Source: Embleya scabrispora (GTDB lineage Bacteria > Actinomycetota > Actinomycetes > Streptomycetales > Streptomycetaceae). Taken from it: DNA of 64,000 nt. Both the position numbers and the translations under genes were made by a program. The notes under the pieces were generated by a model. It was given only the letters and a program-made list of their open reading frames with translations. It ran no database searches and had not been told where the DNA came from. Below, piece after piece: positions 5,809 through 50,687 of the stretch. Numbering within the stretch: the stretch's first letter is position 1; each line of letters opens with the position of its first letter. Location: the NCBI RefSeq assembly GCF_002024165.1, contig NZ_MWQN01000001.1, positions 6,572,001 to 6,636,000 on the forward strand, given 5' to 3'.

Positions 5809-6474
5809 ACCGAGCCCTCCTACCTCGCCGCCGTCCGGGAGTCGTACGACACCGTCGCCGGCGACTACGCGGATCTCGTCAAGCCCCCGGCGGACCTGGA
5901 TCCGTTGTCGCGCGCGATGCTCGCCGCGTTCGCCGAGACCGTGCGGGCGGCCGGTCGCGGGCCGGTCGCGGACCTGGGGTGCGGGCCCGGCAAGGTCACG
6001 GCGCATCTGGTGGACCTGGGGGTGCCCGCGTTCGGCATCGACCTGTCCCCGAAGATGATCGAGTCGGCCCGGCAGGCCTACCCGAACCTGGACTTCACAG
6101 TGGGCTCGATGACCGCGCTCGCGATCGGGGACGACGAGCTCGGCGGCATCCTGGCCTACTACTCCACGCACCACACGCCGCCGGACCTGTTGCCCCTCGT
6201 GTTCGCCGAGTTCCATCGCACGCTCGCCCCCGGCGGCTGTTCGATGGTGGCCGGCCATGTGGGAGACGATGTGCGGCTGCGACCGACGCGGGCATACGGC
6301 GGCCATCCGGTGTCCTACGAGTCCCACCTGCAACCGCCGGATCGGATCGTCGCGCTCCTGGAACGGGCCGGACTCGTCGTCACCTCTCGACTGCTCCAGG
6401 AGCCGGACGAAGGAGCGCGGCGAACGATCGCCACCTTTCTGGCGCACAAGCCCGAACCGCCCGCGACCCCGTAG
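5806..6474 (+). CDS. Class I SAM-dependent methyltransferase
   Basis: 222-residue soluble methyltransferase of the methyltransf_11/25 type. Motif I VADLGCGPGKVT is near residues 48-60, the acidic SAM ribose contact lies in FGIDLSPKMIESAR, and motif II/III positions follow (GGILAYYSTHH, LAPGGCSMVAGH). The start YDTVAGDYADLV is the usual N-terminal helix of small-molecule methyltransferases. The GTG start at 5806 is favoured because a -10 element lies immediately upstream. The substrate cannot be told; the gene is divergent from a PadR regulator and could be under its control. Confidence 0.83.
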   Translation: MTEPSYLAAVRESYDTVAGDYADLVKPPADLDPLSRAMLAAFAETVRAAGRGPVADLGCGPGKVTAHLVDLGVPAFGIDLSPKMIESARQAYPNLDFTVGSMTALAIGDDELGGILAYYSTHHTPPDLLPLVFAEFHRTLAPGGCSMVAGHVGDDVRLRPTRAYGGHPVSYESHLQPPDRIVALLERAGLVVTSRLLQEPDEGARRTIATFLAHKPEPPATP

Positions 6475-6662
6475 GGGGATTGGGGCGGGGGTTTCGGGGC
6501 AGGACGCTGCGGCGGTGGGGAATCGCATGCGCGGTGCGCGAGGGGAACTTCGCTCGGGTGTCGGGCGTCCTTCGGGGGCATGGGATGCGCCGTGATCGAT
6601 CCACGCGGCGAGCCTTCGCAGGTTCTCCACGGAATCCGCACGAAGCGGGCGCACGAGACGCG

Positions 6663-6690
6663 TTGGGCGAGCCTCGCTTACGGGTAGATT
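6663..6690 (+). promoter_or_regulatory. Candidate promoter for small membrane protein gene
   Basis: -35-like TTGGGC (6663-6668) and -10-like TAGATT (6685-6690) with a 16-bp spacer, about 45 bp before the GTG at 6735. The rest of the 6475-6734 gap shows no gene. Confidence 0.4.
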
Positions 6691-6734
6691 TCGGTTGATC
6701 GCTCTTGGTGACCGGCTGGCGTGGGGAGAGGGCT

Positions 6735-7079
6735 GTGTGGACCTGGTTGGCGGTGGGGTCGGCCGCATACCTCGCGTTCCTCGCGTGCGTGATCGTGGTG
6801 CTGCGCGCCGCCAAGGCCCGCGCGCGGGTGGAACGGGCGGTGGACGCCCGGGAGTTCGGGGCGCCGTCGCCGTTGCCGTCGTCTCCGTCACCGCCGGCGA
6901 AGCCGGATCCGGGTTCGGCCGCGGCGCCGACGACGGATGGTGGGCCGGCGGAGCCTCGCGGCGAGGAGGAGGCGGCGCGGGCGCACCCGGAGCCGGGCGA
7001 GACCGGCGAGCCGGTGCGGGGATGTGCGCCGAGGCCGGTGGCACCGCCGAATCCGCCCACCTCACGGATGCGGGGCTGA
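6735..7079 (+). CDS. Small single-pass membrane protein, hypothetical
   Basis: 114 residues. A hydrophobic helix spans about residues 3-23 (VWTWLAVGSAAYLAFLACVIVVL), followed by a basic stretch and a long Pro/Glu/Ala-rich tail that is probably disordered. GTG 6735 is preceded by GGGAGAGG. Only 43 bp separate it from the Bpa gene, so the two may be cotranscribed. I do not recognise the family; the tail could be cytosolic given the positive residues after the helix. Confidence 0.55.
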   Translation: MWTWLAVGSAAYLAFLACVIVVLRAAKARARVERAVDAREFGAPSPLPSSPSPPAKPDPGSAAAPTTDGGPAEPRGEEEAARAHPEPGETGEPVRGCAPRPVAPPNPPTSRMRG

Positions 7080-7122
7080 GATCGAACCGTTTCCCCCGAG
7101 CGGCTCGGGGTAGGGGCGGCGC

Positions 7123-7554
7123 ATGGCCGACCCGATGCCCGCCGCCGCGCCCGATGGGGAGGACCGACGTCCGCTGGGCGAACTGGTGCCCGCCCCCGAT
7201 CGAGTGATGCGCATCGCCGAGATGGTTCGCCGACTCATGGAGGAACTGCGCGACGCGCCACTGGACGAACCCGGGCGCGACCGGGTCCGGGAGGTCTACG
7301 AACGCTCGTTGCCCGAGCTGCGCCGTTCCCTCGCGCCCGACCTGTACGCCGAACTGGAACGCCTCGCCGCGCCGTTCGCCGGCACGGACACCCCGAGCAT
7401 GGCCGAACTGCGGATCGTGCACGCGCAGTTGGTCGGCTGGCTGGAAGGGTTGTGGGGCGGAATCCGGCTGACCCTGTCGATGCGGCCCGGGGGCGCCGAG
7501 ATCGGCCCGCTCCGGCCGGTTTCGGACGACGGTGACGACGGCTCGTACCTGTGA
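7123..7554 (+). CDS. bpa: Bacterial proteasome activator Bpa (DUF2587 family)
   Basis: 143-residue ATP-independent activator of the actinobacterial 20S proteasome. Bpa forms a ring that docks on the core particle and opens its gate for unfolded or non-pupylated substrates. The conserved four-helix core is clear: DRVMRIAEMVRRLMEELRDAPLD near residue 27 onward, YERSLPELRRSLAPDLYAEL in the middle, and AELRIVHAQLVGWLEGLWGGI at about 97-117. The last residues are GSYL, matching the docking tail GQYL of characterised members except at one position. It is shorter than the mycobacterial protein (about 175 residues), having a reduced linker before the tail. Start ATG 7123. Confidence 0.93.
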   Translation: MADPMPAAAPDGEDRRPLGELVPAPDRVMRIAEMVRRLMEELRDAPLDEPGRDRVREVYERSLPELRRSLAPDLYAELERLAAPFAGTDTPSMAELRIVHAQLVGWLEGLWGGIRLTLSMRPGGAEIGPLRPVSDDGDDGSYL

Positions 7555-7574
7555 CGGTTGCCTGACTGTGTCAA

Positions 7575-7613
7575 GCTGACGGGAGGTCAGCCGCGCGCTG
7601 ACGACACGTCAGC
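7575..7613. promoter_or_regulatory. Two tandem 17-bp palindromes GCTGAC-N5-GTCAGC (candidate operator)
   Basis: Perfect inverted repeats at 7575-7591 (spacer GGGAG) and 7597-7613 (spacer GACAC), centres 22 bp apart, about two helical turns. They sit 23 bp before the start of the thioesterase gene, where a bound dimer would block transcription. The arm length and spacing suit a TetR-family repressor; the regulator is not encoded next to it. Confidence 0.65.
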
Positions 7614-7635
7614 CGAGCACCGTGGAGTGGCCACC

Positions 7636-8496
7636 ATGACCGAGCGGGCAGCCGCCGAGACCGCGCCGACCCCGGACGGGACGCGCTACGAACTCGACCG
7701 GGACACCACGTGTGTGGCCCGCCCGGACGCCCCGGGCGTCCTCGACACCACCCTGTCCGCGGACTGGGCGTTCGGCATGGGTGTCAACGGCGGCTACCTG
7801 CTCGCCCTCGCCGCCCGCGCACTCGGCACGAGCCTGCCGCAACCGGACCCGTTCACGATCACCGCCCACTACCCGACCGCCTCGCACCCCGGACCGGCGG
7901 AGGTGCACACCGAGGTGCTGCACGCGGGACGCACGCTGGCCACCGGCACCGCGCGGATCGTTCAGGACGGCCGGACCCGGGTGCACGTCACCGGCACCTA
8001 CGGCGACCTGGACGCACTGGATGCCGAGGTGCGGACCAGCGCCCGGCCGCCGGAGTTCCCCTCGTTGGCGGAGTGCGCGGCGAACGGCGCCCTCCCGGCC
8101 GCGTTCCGGCGCAACGCCTTCATGCACCGCAGCGAGCAGTTGCTCGATCCCGCGACGGTGCGCTGGGCGGCCGGCGAGCCGTCCGGGCGCGGCGAGATCC
8201 GGGCCTGGTGGCGCCTGGCCGACGGGCGCGACCCGGATCCGCTCGCGCTGCTGCTCGCGGTCGACTCGCTCGCGCCGACCGCGTTCGACCTGGGCCTGCG
8301 GGGCTGGGTGCCCACGGTGGAGTTGACCGTGCATGTGCGGGCCAGGCCGGTGCCGGGGTGGCTGCGGGTGTCGTTGCGTACGCGCAACCTGGCCGGCGGC
8401 TTCCTGGAGGAGGACGGCGAGGTGTGGGACGCGGCGGGGCGACTGGTCGCCCAGTCCAGGCAGTTGGCCCGGGCACCGCGGCGGCGGGAGGCGTAG
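7636..8496 (+). CDS. Thioesterase superfamily protein (double hot dog, acyl-CoA thioesterase-like)
   Basis: 286-residue protein with two hot-dog halves, resembling TesB-like/4HBT_3 acyl-CoA thioesterases. The first half shows LSADWAFGMGVNGGYLLALAARAL (about 41-64), the nucleotide and pantetheine side of such enzymes; the second carries LLLAVDSLAPTAFDLGLRGWVPTVELTVHVRARP (about 206-239). The expected catalytic Asp would be in the AVDSL segment. The reaction is hydrolysis of an acyl-CoA to the free acid, inferred. ATG 7636 lies just after two tandem operator-like palindromes, which implies control by an acyl-CoA or fatty-acid responsive repressor. Confidence 0.75.
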   Translation: MTERAAAETAPTPDGTRYELDRDTTCVARPDAPGVLDTTLSADWAFGMGVNGGYLLALAARALGTSLPQPDPFTITAHYPTASHPGPAEVHTEVLHAGRTLATGTARIVQDGRTRVHVTGTYGDLDALDAEVRTSARPPEFPSLAECAANGALPAAFRRNAFMHRSEQLLDPATVRWAAGEPSGRGEIRAWWRLADGRDPDPLALLLAVDSLAPTAFDLGLRGWVPTVELTVHVRARPVPGWLRVSLRTRNLAGGFLEEDGEVWDAAGRLVAQSRQLARAPRRREA

Positions 8497-8523
8497 CGCG
8501 GCGGTCCGGATGCCCGGCGCCGA

Positions 8524-9402
8524 TCAGCGTGGCGGTCCGTACGGTCCCGGTGGGCCGTAGGGGCCCTGGGGGCCGGGCGGACCGTACTGCCCGGGCGGGG
8601 GGCCGTACGGGCCCGGCTGTTGCGGCGGCGGGGGCGCGGCGCCGTGCGGGCCGCCGGGGCCGGCCCAGCCGTTGTTCCGGAAGCCGTCCCGCCCCATGCC
8701 GAAGTAGCGGTTGCCGTCGGTCGCGGTCAGGTTCGCGGGCAGGATCTCACTGGGCTGCACCACCACGTAGCCCTCGCCGATGAAGGCCATCGTCCAGCCC
8801 TCGCCGGTCTGGCGACGGCGCCGCCAGATGCGCTGGGACGTGGTCTGCGCTTGGAGGCTGGTCTGGAGGCCGGCGGTCCAGGCGATCACCGCGTCGGCGT
8901 CCGCGAACACTTCGCGATCGTGCGAGGCGCGCAGCACGAGCGGTGCGCCGGAGGTGGTGATCACGATCTTGCCGGTGCCGCCGATCTGCATCGAATACGC
9001 GCCCATGCCGCCGACGTTGTAGCCGGCGTCGATCTGGATCACGCTCCAGTTGAGCGTGCCGTCCAGGGCCAGCACGTTCTCGTCCTCGACGATCAGCGCC
9101 TCGTTGTTCAGGTTCAGGATGTGGATGCTCTGTGCCTGGTTGGCGAGATAGACCGTGCCGTGCCCGTGGCAGCGCATCAGGTCGAGCATGTCGCCGGTGA
9201 GCGCGCCGGTGCGCAGTTCGGCCGCGCTCTGGAAGGCGCCCTCGAACTGCACGTTGCCCTGGTAGGCCACCATCGCGCCCTTGCGGGCCAGCACCTCGGT
9301 GCCGACCTCCGGGGCCAGCAGGACCCGGAGCATGTGCGCGCTCTGCAGGCTGTAGCGCTCTGCGGACTGGCTCACCGTGTGGTTGAACAGCGGACTCTGC
9401 AC
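8524..9402 (-). CDS. AIM24 family protein with Pro/Gly/Tyr-rich C-terminal tail
   Basis: 292 residues. Residues 1-225 form the AIM24/TRAP-like beta-helical fold (HMLRVLLAPEVGTEVLARKGAMVAYQG; TVYLANQAQSIHILNLN; SGAPLVLRASHDREVFADADAVIAW). The C-terminal about 50 residues are repeats of GPYGPPG type and likely disordered. The function of bacterial AIM24 proteins is not established; the mitochondrial relative affects inner-membrane architecture. GTG 9402 is chosen because TCGGAGACCTC lies right before it; the longer upstream reading is Arg/His rich and unlike the family. Confidence 0.8.
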   Translation of the reverse strand: MQSPLFNHTVSQSAERYSLQSAHMLRVLLAPEVGTEVLARKGAMVAYQGNVQFEGAFQSAAELRTGALTGDMLDLMRCHGHGTVYLANQAQSIHILNLNNEALIVEDENVLALDGTLNWSVIQIDAGYNVGGMGAYSMQIGGTGKIVITTSGAPLVLRASHDREVFADADAVIAWTAGLQTSLQAQTTSQRIWRRRRQTGEGWTMAFIGEGYVVVQPSEILPANLTATDGNRYFGMGRDGFRNNGWAGPGGPHGAAPPPPQQPGPYGPPPGQYGPPGPQGPYGPPGPYGPPR

Positions 9403-9728
9403 GAGGTCTCCGACGGATCCGGCAACGGCGTTGGCGTGGTGGGTGCGGCGGGCGTGGTGGTTCGACGGCGCGGGCGGGCGGCCGAACCGGCAACGCCCGG
9501 TCGCAGCACAAGACTCATGATTCCCCGTCGGCGGTTCCGGCGGAAACCAAGGGCTGCCCATGTCGGTGGCGGGGGAGCGGACGGGTCTCTGTTACGGCGT
9601 TACAGTGCGGCGGTACAGTGCGGTGGCGCGGCGCGATGTCGTGTCGCGGTGCCGCGTCGGGGCGTCGCGGCGCACGGCGGCGTCGTGTTGGTTTCGCATC
9701 GCCGTTCCACGACCTCTCGGGGGTTCCC
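9403..9728. other. Divergent intergenic region, no gene seen
   Basis: 326 bp between the AIM24 and LLM genes. The only structure noted is the direct repeat TACAGTGCGG at 9601-9610 and 9614-9623, with -10-like TACAGT in each, followed by a G/C-rich stretch rich in CGCGGTG words. It may hold the LLM promoter. Confidence 0.4.
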
Positions 9729-10661
9729 ATGACCACGCCATCGCCCGGTGTGCCGGCCGCGCATCGACCCGTTCCGGAGTTGGGGCGGATCGGCCTGTGG
9801 ACCGCCGCACTCGATCACATGCCGGTGTCGCGACTGCGCGAGACGGTGGCCGAACTCGACGAACTCGGCTACGGCACGCTGTGGTGGGGCGAGGCGGTGG
9901 GCCGTGAGGCGTTCACGCAGGCGCTCCTCGTGCTCGGCGCCGCGCCACGGATCGCCGCCGCGACGGGGATCGCGAACGTCTGGGCGCGGGACGCGATGGC
10001 GGCCAACGCGGCGGCGCGGACCGTCGACGACGCGCACCCGGGGCGGTTCCTGACCGGGCTCGGGATCAGCCACGACGGCCTGGTCGAGGGCCTGCGGCCG
10101 GGCGGACGCCGGTACGAGAAGCCGCTGGCGCACCTGCGCGAGTACCTGGACGCGATGGACTCCGCCCTGTACCTGGCCGCCGGCGCCGACACTCCGCGAC
10201 CGGCGCGGGTCCTGGCCGCGCTCGGCCCGCGCATGCTCGACCTCGCGCGCGAGCGGGCCGAGGGCGCGCACACGTATCTGGTCACCCCCGAGCACACCGC
10301 CGAGGCGCGCGCGGCACTGGGCCCGGACCGCCTGCTCGCGGTGGAACAGGCGGTCGTGCTGTCCGACGATCGGGAAACCGTGCTGCGCCGCGCCCGCACG
10401 CACCTGGGCATGTACCTGTCCCTGCCGAACTACCGCCGCAACCTGCTGCGCCTGGGCCTGACCGAGGCCGACTTCGAGGCCGGCGGCAGCGCGCGGCTGA
10501 TCGACCGCCTGATCCTGTCCGGGTCGGAATCCGCCGTCGAGGAAGGTGTTCGGGCGCACATCGCGGCAGGCGCCGACCACGTGTGCCTCCAGGTACTCGG
10601 CGACACCCTGGGGGAGGCTCCGACCGCGGACTGGCGGCGGTTGGCGGCGGCGCTGATCTGA
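9729..10661 (+). CDS. LLM class F420-dependent oxidoreductase (TIGR03620-like)
   Basis: 310-residue TIM-barrel flavin/F420 oxidoreductase. Family signs are LGRIGLWTAALDHMP at the N-terminus, ELDELGYGTLWWGEAVGREAF, the A-x-TGIANVWARDAMAANAAARTVDDAHPGRFLTGLGISH core (about 77-115), and ADHVCLQVLG near the end. Such enzymes use reduced coenzyme F420, abundant in actinomycetes, to reduce or oxidise small molecules; the substrate is unknown. ATG 9729 matches the family N-terminus. It is convergent with the class V aminotransferase gene. Confidence 0.85.
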   Translation: MTTPSPGVPAAHRPVPELGRIGLWTAALDHMPVSRLRETVAELDELGYGTLWWGEAVGREAFTQALLVLGAAPRIAAATGIANVWARDAMAANAAARTVDDAHPGRFLTGLGISHDGLVEGLRPGGRRYEKPLAHLREYLDAMDSALYLAAGADTPRPARVLAALGPRMLDLARERAEGAHTYLVTPEHTAEARAALGPDRLLAVEQAVVLSDDRETVLRRARTHLGMYLSLPNYRRNLLRLGLTEADFEAGGSARLIDRLILSGSESAVEEGVRAHIAAGADHVCLQVLGDTLGEAPTADWRRLAAALI

Positions 10662-46170: not shown

Positions 46171-46514
46171 AACTGGCCTGTGCATCCCGTCGAGACACCG
46201 TCCGCGTGGGCCGGCGCCGCCATCCGGAGGCTACTGAGAGCCCTGATCGGCACGGAAGACCGGGTCCGGACCGGCCGATGGGCGGCCGGGGCGGGCGGCC
46301 GGGAAGCGCGTCGTGACCGAGGCGCGGACCCGGGAAGCGTCACCGAGACGCGTGATCGGGGGGTGCGGCCGAGACGCGTGGCCGGAGCACGCCCAGGTGC
46401 ATGATCGCGGCACGCGTGGCGGTCCGCGTGCCGGGGAAGGTCCGCGTGGTAGGCAAAGGACGATCGGGCGCACGCAAGGGGTGTCGCCCGCCGCGCCGGA
46501 TGAGGAGTACGACG
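46171..46514. other. Intergenic region, no gene seen
   Basis: 344 bp between the divergent SDR and UBP genes. CCGAGACGCGTG occurs at 46343-46354 and 46369-46380, 26 bp apart; other ACGCGTG and CCGCGTG words recur up to 46450. No reading frame with a ribosome site apart from the UBP gene. Confidence 0.4.
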
Positions 46515-46838
46515 ATGGCCGGGACGCAGTACCAGGTGGTTCAGGACGGTGCCGGGCGGCCCACGGACGCGCCCTGTTCGCACCTCGACACACTGCCCGA
46601 CAACGTGCGGCCGGGGTCGACCGAGGGCTGCGAGGACTGTCTGCGCGACGGCACCCGGTGGGTGCATCTGCGCGAGTGCCTGACCTGCGGGCACATCGGC
46701 TGTTGCGACAGCTCGCCGAACCGGCACGCGACCGCGCACTGGCACGCGGCCGACCATCCGCTGGTGCGCTCCTTCGAGCCCGGCGAGGAGTGGGCGTGGT
46801 GCTACGCCGACGAACTGGTCGCGGTGCCCGTGGACTGA
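46515..46838 (+). CDS. UBP-type zinc finger domain protein
   Basis: 107-residue protein made almost entirely of a ZnF-UBP domain, which in eukaryotes recognises the free C-terminal Gly-Gly of ubiquitin. Zinc ligands of the pattern are visible: C21, H23, C39, C42, C55, C58, C63 or C64, H71, H75 or H77 and H81, followed by the typical WCY at 96-98. ATG 46515 is preceded by GAGGAG. Such stand-alone copies are known in actinomycetes without ubiquitin; the partner is unknown. It lies 110 bp before a sigma-factor locus. Confidence 0.82.
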   Translation: MAGTQYQVVQDGAGRPTDAPCSHLDTLPDNVRPGSTEGCEDCLRDGTRWVHLRECLTCGHIGCCDSSPNRHATAHWHAADHPLVRSFEPGEEWAWCYADELVAVPVD

Positions 46839-49351: not shown

Positions 49352-50461
49352 CTAGGTGGTCGGCGCCGGTCCGATCTCCACTCTGCCGCCGCCGGGTTCG
49401 TCGAGCCATGCCCACTGGTCGTCACCGGTCACGGTGACCCCGTGCCGTTCGCGTGGCGGCTCGCCCTGATCGCGCCACGCCGCGTAGGCGGCTTCGATCT
49501 CCGCCCACAGGTCACGTGGCCCGTGCTCGTTCACCTCGTAGGTGTCCACGCCGGGTTTGTAGTCGATGGCTGCCCATGACGTTCCGTCGGCGTACCAGAC
49601 CGTGAACTGTTCGGCTCTGTCGCCCGATCCGAAGAACGTGCGGTGCTCCACCTCGGGCAGCCGCAACCCGATCGCGAAGTCGGCGTGCTCCTCCCGGATG
49701 GGTCGCGGATCCGTCGTGGTGTGTCGCACCCGGGCCGTGTCCGGGTCCGCGATGACGTCGCCCACCAATCTGCGGTCCTCGAACCGGCGGCGCTGCGACC
49801 GGGCGAACATGAACGCGGCGTTGCCGACGAACCGGCCGCTTGCCGTGCCGTCGCCCGCGACGACCAACCGCAACAGCGAGCTGTTGTTGTACGGCGTGCC
49901 CCAGGGCGTCACGATCACCCCACCGGGGCGTACCTGCTCCACCCACTCGTACGGCACGCGTTGAACCGCCATGGTCGCGATGAGGCGGTCGTACGGCGCA
50001 CCTTCCTTGTGCCCCCGCAATCCGTCGCCGACGATCAGCGTCGGTTCGAAGTCACGGGCGGACAGGGACTCTCGGGCTCGGCTTGCGACGGTCGGGTCCA
50101 CCTCGATGGATGTCACCCGACCGTGCGTCAGTGCCGTGGCCAACAGCGCTGTCGACCATCCGGTTCCCGTGCCGATTTCGAGCACGTTGTGATCGGTGTG
50201 CGGATCGAGCCGTTCGAGCATGAGCCGAACCAGGAACGGCATCGACACGGACGACGTGGGGATCATGTGGCCGGCGTCGGTCCCGTCGTCCACCTGGGTA
50301 ACGAGGGGGATGTCCGCCGCTACGGCTTCCTCCCATGCGTTTGGGTCGGTGCCGCGGTCGATCCGTGCGTCGTCATCGCCCGCCCACACCACGTCGGGGA
50401 CGTAGGGGCGACGGGGTGTGTCCGCGAACACGCGATCCCACAGGGGGCGAGTGTCCGTCAC
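49352..50461 (-). CDS. PIMT-like O-methyltransferase, RiPP-associated type (imiditide-like)
   Basis: 369-residue SAM enzyme related to protein L-isoaspartyl methyltransferase. It has PDVVWAGDDDARIDRGTDP and VTQVDDGTDAGHMIPTSSVSMP (PIMT active-site region, about 54-75), the SAM motif VLEIGTGTGWSTALLA (93-108), and PYDRLIATMAVQRVPYEWVEQVRPGG. Beyond the PIMT core it carries a C-terminal extension ending in HGVTVTGDDQWAWLDEPGG (about 340-358), of the kind seen in PIMT homologues of peptide-modification clusters. GTG 50461 overlaps the stop of a 43-residue peptide gene as GTGA. The likely reaction is methyl esterification of Asp in that peptide, followed by aspartimide formation. Confidence 0.8.
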   Translation of the reverse strand: MTDTRPLWDRVFADTPRRPYVPDVVWAGDDDARIDRGTDPNAWEEAVAADIPLVTQVDDGTDAGHMIPTSSVSMPFLVRLMLERLDPHTDHNVLEIGTGTGWSTALLATALTHGRVTSIEVDPTVASRARESLSARDFEPTLIVGDGLRGHKEGAPYDRLIATMAVQRVPYEWVEQVRPGGVIVTPWGTPYNNSSLLRLVVAGDGTASGRFVGNAAFMFARSQRRRFEDRRLVGDVIADPDTARVRHTTTDPRPIREEHADFAIGLRLPEVEHRTFFGSGDRAEQFTVWYADGTSWAAIDYKPGVDTYEVNEHGPRDLWAEIEAAYAAWRDQGEPPRERHGVTVTGDDQWAWLDEPGGGRVEIGPAPTT

Positions 50462-50589
50462 TCGTCCTTGTCCTTCGGGTCGGTGGGGTCGTTCGACGGG
50501 ATCGGCTTGTCCTTCGGCCATCGGCCGTCCTTGTCACGATGGGGGGTCTTGCCGTCCCCGTCGTTGCCGGGCCTTCCGTGCTCAGCCAT
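50458..50589 (-). CDS. 43-residue Asp/Lys/Arg-rich peptide, candidate aspartimide (imiditide) precursor
   Basis: A well-formed small gene: GGGAGG lies seven bases before ATG 50589, and its TGA overlaps the methyltransferase GTG. The product has 9 Asp, 2 Glu and 9 Lys/Arg in 43 residues, a single Trp (W24), no Cys and no hydrophobic helix. Three Asp-Gly pairs (D10, D12, D21) are the sequence context most prone to aspartimide formation; the end is NDPTDPKDKDE. High charge and coupling to a PIMT homologue fit the imiditide precursor type. It may instead be a small charged protein of other use. Confidence 0.65.
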   Translation of the reverse strand: MAEHGRPGNDGDGKTPHRDKDGRWPKDKPIPSNDPTDPKDKDE

Positions 50590-50687
50590 CGTCGTACCTC
50601 CCGAGGTGTCGAGTCGGTACCCATGCTGTGCCTGCCCGGCGGCCGCAGGAGGCCGAATACCCGAAAGTGTTGGGTTTGTTCGGCTTG

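What the first reader, a model, noticed from the sequence alone, without database searches (positions are those of the whole stretch)
49352..50589. Imiditide-like RiPP locus: charged 43-residue peptide coupled to a PIMT-type methyltransferase
The sequence shows a small gene with a strong ribosome site whose stop overlaps the start of a PIMT homologue as GTGA, with no other biosynthetic gene attached. The peptide is extremely charged (9 Asp, 9 Lys/Arg), lacks Cys, and has three Asp-Gly pairs. The methyltransferase has the extra C-terminal segment ending WLDEP seen in peptide-associated PIMT homologues. Imiditides are known as a RiPP family defined by precisely this pair, where a PIMT homologue esterifies one Asp and it closes to an aspartimide. 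Assignment of this pair is inference; a new precursor subfamily is possible because no constraint-forming enzyme and no separate leader are seen.
Basis: partly seen in the sequence, partly recalled or inferred. Interest (0 to 1): 0.85.

Follow-up and report, generated by a model that had tools for sequence, protein, structure and literature searches.

The report
Typical imiditide (type I pamtide) pair
The two small neighbouring genes are a real peptide-plus-enzyme pair of a recently described natural-product family in which an enzyme activates one aspartate of a peptide so that it closes into a ring or isomerises; it is a new but ordinary member of that family.

Summary
A 43-codon gene (window 50458-50589, minus strand) overlaps by GTGA a 369-residue PIMT homologue (49352-50461); ten neighbouring ORFs hold no other RiPP enzyme. 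The peptide is real and linked to the enzyme. It is present in 6 of 7 close homologues in four Embleya genomes; the seventh copy has lost its 5' end. A profile of the peptide alone hit 16 other genomes (all one genus of the same family) among 391 sampled, and all 16 have a homologous methyltransferase match just downstream, two of them partial. The methyltransferase carries the WXXXGXP motif (WRDQGEP), resembles T. maritima PIMT with its C-terminal domain, and stays far below repair-PIMT cut-offs. The testable defining features of type I pamtides (= imiditides) are met, except the basic C-terminus, which is inconclusive; the chemistry is inferred. Absence of a cyclase is normal for this class. 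Comparison of 25 precursors points to Asp21 (Asp-Gly of DG[QR]W) as the modified residue, with Asp12 as runner-up. Small peculiarities: a KDKD tail, and an enzyme about 20 residues shorter at its N-terminus than a distant paralogue. Verdict: new member of a known kind, fairly low interest.

The parts
50458..50589 (-). precursor peptide gene, 43 aa, type I pamtide/imiditide precursor of the DG[QR]W group; predicted modified residue Asp21, alternative Asp12
   Evidence: homologues and GTGA overlap; peptide-only profile search; conservation
49352..50461 (-). RiPP-associated PIMT homologue (PAMT), 369 aa, SAM-dependent aspartyl O-methyltransferase with C-terminal domain and WRDQGEP motif
   Evidence: model and 1dl5 match
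50597..50602 (-). ribosome-binding site GGGAGG seven bases upstream of the peptide ATG; identical in 5 of 6 Embleya loci that hold the peptide, GGAAGG in L011
49304..49337 (-). GC-rich hairpin just after the methyltransferase stop (13-pair stem, 8-base loop), possible transcript end; inverted repeats seen by eye at the same place in the six relatives printed
   Evidence: (MFE -39.2 kcal/mol, z -2.36, 3 of 200 shuffles as good); the consensus scan found no terminator with a T-run

Best explanation
A two-gene RiPP locus of the type I pamtide (imiditide) class in an Embleya species. The 43-aa precursor and its PAMT are translated from one transcript by stop-start overlap (inferred). The PAMT binds the linear charged peptide with help of its C-terminal domain, methylates the side-chain carboxylate of one Asp, most likely Asp21 in KDGRW, and the next backbone amide (Gly22) then expels methanol to give an aspartimide (+14 then -18 Da), which may persist or hydrolyse to isoAsp/Asp. 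Shown here: the gene pair, its conservation and linkage, the enzyme family, the invariant Asp-Gly. Inferred from characterised homologues: the reaction, the site, and any later processing. What the product does is unknown for the class (PMC13001092).
For: Whole-length match to the RiPP methyltransferase model and weak match to repair PIMTs. WXXXGXP motif, described for lasso, graspetide and imiditide PIMTs (PMC13001092). Fold model closest to T. maritima PIMT 1dl5, 357 columns, E 1.2e-14, against about 215 columns for the one-domain PIMTs next in the list. No RiPP enzyme domain in ten neighbouring ORFs scanned. Precursor size and composition fit the published type I profile: 43 aa, 49% Gly+Pro+Asp; the 48 precursors collected average 42.7 aa with G 21.7, P 15.3, D 13.0% (published ~45 aa, G 17.3, P 16.8, D 10.2%). 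Peptide and in-frame GTGA overlap kept in 6 of 7 close Embleya homologues and in L043 and L044 of other genera. Peptide-only profile: 17 of 391 sampled order genomes incl. own; all 16 others have an enzyme match downstream, 14 along most of the enzyme, 2 (L112, L115) partial. Asp21-Gly22 and Asp12 in 25 of 25 DG[QR]W-group peptides; position 10 is D 12, E 12, A 1.
Against: No biochemical data on this pair. NmaA/NmaM and SpaA/SpaM could not be compared: their sequences are not in the text I could read. The TIGR04188 score is under its curated cut-off. The peptide ends KDKDE with net charge -2, whereas the review speaks of strong positive charge in the class. Most peptides were picked by eye among ORFs with a ribosome site. 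7 of 59 enzyme loci have no recognised peptide, among them one homologous group in three Embleya genomes (L019, L022, L029). Asp12 is as invariant as Asp21 within the subgroup, and the search profile and counting pattern favour both, so conservation alone does not settle the site. In a quick, unfinished tree the enzymes of the DG[QR]W group fall in three places, not one clade. The match to 1dl5 has rmsd 8 A, so the domain arrangement is not well fixed, and residues 217-239 of the model are below pLDDT 50.
Confidence: 0.88

Rival explanations
1. The methyltransferase is a protein-repair PIMT and the upstream ORF is not its substrate.
For: It has a PCMT domain (PF01135, 90.9 bits), and all its best PDB relatives by sequence are PIMTs.
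Against: Repair models score at most 98.8 bits with cut-off 188; 369 aa with a C-terminal domain and WXXXGXP; the peptide travels with it across genera; the genome holds 22 PF01135 matches. Which of them is the housekeeping repair enzyme was not established (one search shows none of the ten tested reaching a repair-model cut-off).
Confidence: 0.03
2. The pair is an accessory part of another RiPP class (graspetide, lanthipeptide, lasso) whose other genes lie elsewhere.
For: Best named model is the ATP-grasp-associated methyltransferase; known PAMTs of other classes act on cyclised peptides (PMC13001092).
Against: No such enzyme among the ten neighbours scanned; the peptide has no Cys and matches no Pfam or NCBIfam family; among the 25 neighbour families listed, the window shares with the six close Embleya homologues only the enzyme (some of those loci share a neighbour family with each other).
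Confidence: 0.06
3. The modified Asp is Asp12 (or both Asp12 and Asp21) rather than Asp21 alone.
For: Asp12 is present in 25 of 25 DG[QR]W-group peptides.
Against: The residue after Asp12 varies widely (K, R, G, S, D, A, Q, W) while Asp21 is always followed by Gly; all 39 other collected precursors contain an Asp-Gly and none matches the Asp12...Asp21 pattern. [quoted passage not shown]
Confidence: 0.25

Closest known systems
Type I pamtides: SpaA/SpaM of Streptomyces sparsogenes (PMC10787088; parts 1-4 of 5 of the text read, plus passages)
   Same: Two-gene cluster; ~45-aa linear precursor rich in Gly, Pro, Asp; PAMT with C-terminal domain; no cyclase.
   Different: SpaA sequence not available to me, so no residue-level comparison; the Embleya peptides end in KDK/KDKD.
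Imiditides: NmaA/NmaM of Nonomuraea maritima (Cao et al. 2023, not held; known here through the review PMC13001092, parts 1-3 of 5 read, plus passages)
   Same: PAMT acting on a linear, highly charged precursor, recognised partly by charge.
   Different: In NmaA, His follows the modified Asp; here Gly follows the proposed one. Loss of the last 10 residues of NmaA impairs modification; not testable here.
T. maritima PIMT, PDB 1dl5
   Same: Best fold match of the model, over both domains.
   Different: 18-19% identity, rmsd about 8 A; a different biological setting.

Membership tests
Type I pamtides / imiditides | Two-gene unit of precursor and PAMT, no primary RiPP enzyme | tested here: met
   ten neighbouring ORFs between 44246 and 54751 scanned against Pfam, no RiPP enzyme domain
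Type I pamtides / imiditides | PIMT homologue with C-terminal extension of over 100 aa | tested here: met
   PCMT match ends at residue 217 of 369; model aligned to 1dl5 over 357 columns
Type I pamtides / imiditides | WXXXGXP motif near the C-terminus | tested here: met
   WRDQGEP, residues 329-335
Type I pamtides / imiditides | Precursor of about 45 aa rich in Gly, Pro, Asp (and Lys), no tetracysteine motif | tested here: met
   43 aa, 49% G+P+D, no Cys
Type I pamtides / imiditides | Highly conserved Asp near conserved Pro or Gly | tested here: met
   Asp21-Gly22 in 25 of 25; the counting pattern required it, but no peptide failed the pattern
Type I pamtides / imiditides | Conserved acidic/basic residues at the termini, basic C-terminus | tested here: inconclusive
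   The six Embleya peptides end KDK/KDKDK/KDKDE, net charge -2 to 0; of the 19 other group members 17 are +1 to +4 and 2 are -1; in the 24 precursors listed net charge runs from -7 to +5
Type I pamtides / imiditides | Clade membership with SpaM/NmaM | not tested
Type I pamtides / imiditides | +14 / -18 Da conversion of one Asp | not testable with these tools
   needs mass spectrometry
Type II pamtides / cysimiditides | CxxCxGxG tetracysteine motif | tested here: not met
   no Cys in the peptide
Graspetide-associated methyltransferase (TIGR04188 system) | ATP-grasp enzyme in the cluster; model cut-off reached | tested here: not met
   no ATP-grasp among ten neighbours; 294.5 bits against cut-off 380
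Repair PIMT (Pcm) | Equivalog model cut-off | tested here: not met
   98.8 bits against 188 (NF001453), 80.7 against 159.05 (TIGR00080)

The most novel reading that the evidence does not exclude
The Embleya group (with its two nearest relatives in other genera, L043 and L044) may be a distinct variant of type I pamtides: a precursor with two invariant Asp residues and, in Embleya, a KDKD tail, paired with a PAMT about 20 residues shorter at its N-terminus, so that substrate recognition, or the number of modified Asp, differs from NmaA and SpaA.
Probability: 0.12. Interest if true: 0.4.

Novelty: new member of a known kind. Interest (0 to 1): 0.3.

Why it matters
It adds a well-supported precursor group with a proposed Asp-Gly site to a class whose product function is unknown. 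Six dissimilar precursor-enzyme pairs recognised in one genome would make a convenient set for testing which precursor goes with which enzyme. As a discovery it is incremental: the review PMC13001092 already counts 1,414 type I pamtides.

Tried and rejected
New RiPP subfamily because no cyclase is seen: rejected, this is the published norm for type I.

Repair PIMT: rejected on model scores and the C-terminal domain.

Longer methyltransferase from the in-frame ATG at 50521 (389 aa): not favoured; homologue L011 has no start codon upstream of its GTGA start in that frame, and the extension would overlap the peptide gene.

Near-neutral charge as a peculiarity of the Embleya peptides: weakened on recount; several other collected precursors are also at 0 or -1 and one is at -7. 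I lowered the probability of the novel case from 0.15 to 0.12 for this.

Tandem locus G002:C2 with an rSAM-like gene and a PAMT upstream of a precursor-PAMT pair: looked at as a possible new combination; 593 bases separate the two pairs, and 5 of the 17 loci fetched with the rSAM-like protein had a similar PAMT in their flanks of at most about 1.5 kb, so no claim is made. 'rSAM' is my reading of a CxxxCxxC-type motif from memory; NCBIfam gave no match at E <= 1e-20.

Tree: quick tree only, the careful search did not finish. Three of 74 rows (L118, L124, L125) were apparently translated in a wrong frame by my script and must be ignored; with them left aside, the DG[QR]W-group enzymes stand in three places. 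No canonical repair PIMT is in it, so I use it only for the nearest neighbours of the window enzyme.

Full report
What is there. On the minus strand, a 43-codon gene (50589-50458) with a GGGAGG ribosome site is followed by a 369-codon gene (50461-49352) whose GTG start overlaps the stop of the first as GTGA. The window lies in an Embleya genome: genome G001, placed in the same genus, contains the contig that genome contigs names Embleya hyalina NBRC 13850 (contig length 639,333 in both).

The enzyme. It matches PF01135 (90.9 bits, residues 70-217) and, along residues 5-349, the RiPP methyltransferase model TIGR04188 (294.5 bits, below its cut-off 380); repair PIMT models score 98.8 bits at most against a cut-off of 188. 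It carries WRDQGEP, the WXXXGXP motif that the review PMC13001092 describes for lasso, graspetide and imiditide PIMTs. A predicted structure (5 sequences, mean pLDDT 76.7, pTM 0.79, residues 59-66 and 217-239 below 50) is closest in the PDB to T. maritima PIMT 1dl5 (E 1.2e-14, 357 columns, TM 0.50/0.57, rmsd 8 A), which has a C-terminal extension; one-domain PIMTs follow with about 215 columns.

The surroundings. Ten neighbouring ORFs between 44246 and 54751 were scanned against Pfam: S-adenosyl methyltransferase PF04672, CoA-transferase, enoyl-CoA hydratase, ECF-type sigma factor, STAS, DUF4442, short-chain dehydrogenase, hydrolase, zf-UBP and one without match; no RiPP enzyme. A GC-rich hairpin follows the methyltransferase stop, and by eye inverted repeats stand at the same place in the six relatives printed. 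The pattern scan found neither a sigma-70-type promoter nor a T-run terminator.

Is the peptide real and linked. Four Embleya genomes hold seven loci with an enzyme 66-100% identical. Six have the peptide; in the seventh (L017, G002) the enzyme's first 20 residues and the peptide are gone, with unrelated sequence in their place. The in-frame GTGA overlap is present in the six and in L043 and L044 of other genera; L057 ends in TGA without such an overlap in frame. dN is below dS for the peptide in all 15 pairs of the six, from 33-43 codons; the ratio is 0.49 for the window and E. hyalina, and 0.81-0.95 in three of the five pairs with L012. Of 59 enzyme loci examined in the genus and family (L009-L038, L040-L068; L039 left out as a duplicate of L010), a peptide of this kind was assigned by eye in 48 and by similarity in 4 more, 52 of 59; the seven without are L017, L019, L022, L029, L036 (where an ORF that looks ATP-grasp-like by eye stands upstream), L042 and L052. 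Independently of the enzyme, a profile of nine peptides searched in 391 sampled genomes of the order gave matches in 17 (a loose first look, so a lower bound). The 16 other than the window's genome, all of one genus of the same family, have an enzyme match beginning 57 to 161 bases after the peptide's stop, 14 of them along most of the enzyme and 2 partial (L112, L115).

Which Asp. In 25 peptides of the DG[QR]W group (24 distinct) Asp12, Asp21 and Gly22 occur in all; my pattern required these, but no peptide failed it, and 16 of the 25 were found by a profile that favours them. Position 10 is D 12, E 12, A 1; the residue after Asp12 varies; Trp24 is kept in 23 of 25. All 39 other collected precursors contain an Asp-Gly but not the Asp12 pattern. 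This points to Asp21 as the site, with Asp12 as runner-up; it is inference from conservation.

Comparison with the known. PMC10787088 (parts 1 to 4 of 5 read, and passages) describes type I pamtides as two-gene clusters of a ~45-aa precursor rich in Gly, Pro, Asp and a PAMT with C-terminal domain, without conserved cyclase; PMC13001092 (parts 1 to 3 of 5 read, and passages) equates them with imiditides, gives 1,414 type I members and says they are commonest in Streptomyces and Actinomadura. Of PMC11048544 I saw three passages; other papers only as listings. The window pair meets the defining features I could test except the basic C-terminus, which is inconclusive: the six Embleya precursors have net charge -2 to 0 and end in KDK, KDKDK or KDKDE, but neutral or negative precursors also occur among the other paralogues. 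Neither paper names Embleya in the main text held; their supplements were not open to me, so I cannot say that this very locus is unlisted. Searches for 'imiditide' and 'pamtide' listed 4 and 2 papers. The group is common: 43 of 150 sampled genomes of the family have an enzyme match at E <= 1e-70.

Differences. The window enzyme begins about 20 residues later than the paralogue L093, directly at the overlap with the peptide gene (compare). The same genome has five further enzyme loci with a recognised precursor (L015, L018, L027, L031, L035), each with a different peptide. In a quick, unfinished tree the window enzyme sits with the other Embleya copies, then L043, then L044, but the DG[QR]W group as a whole stands in three places (three mistranslated rows ignored).

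Verdict. A genuine type I pamtide/imiditide pair, a new member of a known kind. The reading 'new precursor subfamily' is weak: the group is a recognisable sequence variant shared with relatives in the same family, and nothing points to a new chemistry.

Noticed in passing
L073 (G002:C2:126000-139100), 6061-9846, minus strand: An rSAM-like ORF (my reading of its motif) overlapping a PAMT ORF lies 593 bases upstream of a pamtide precursor-PAMT pair. PMC10787088 reports 249 rSAM-PAMT clusters without a known precursor.
   Followed up: partly
L018/L090, L020/L107, L032, L010/L069, L017/L074, L077: XRE/DUF5753-type regulator genes stand within a few kilobases of several PAMT loci in Embleya and relatives; none was called beside the window pair. 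Not tested statistically.
   Followed up: partly
L019, L022, L029: One group of closely related PAMTs in three Embleya genomes has no recognisable precursor beside it; its substrate is unknown.
   Followed up: no
G000: The window's genome holds about 20 PIMT-type matches, including six with a recognised pamtide precursor and one FxLD-type fused methyltransferase (L095, 437 bits); the three other Embleya genomes have 17 to 24 matches to the window enzyme.
   Followed up: partly
window 46401-46838 (+): A bacterial protein with a zinc finger of the ubiquitin-hydrolase type (zf-UBP, PF02148, 48.3 bits).
   Followed up: no
L017 (G002:C158): A 5'-truncated PAMT copy whose upstream part is probably antisense to an adjacent XRE/DUF5753 gene; looks like a decaying locus.
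   Followed up: partly
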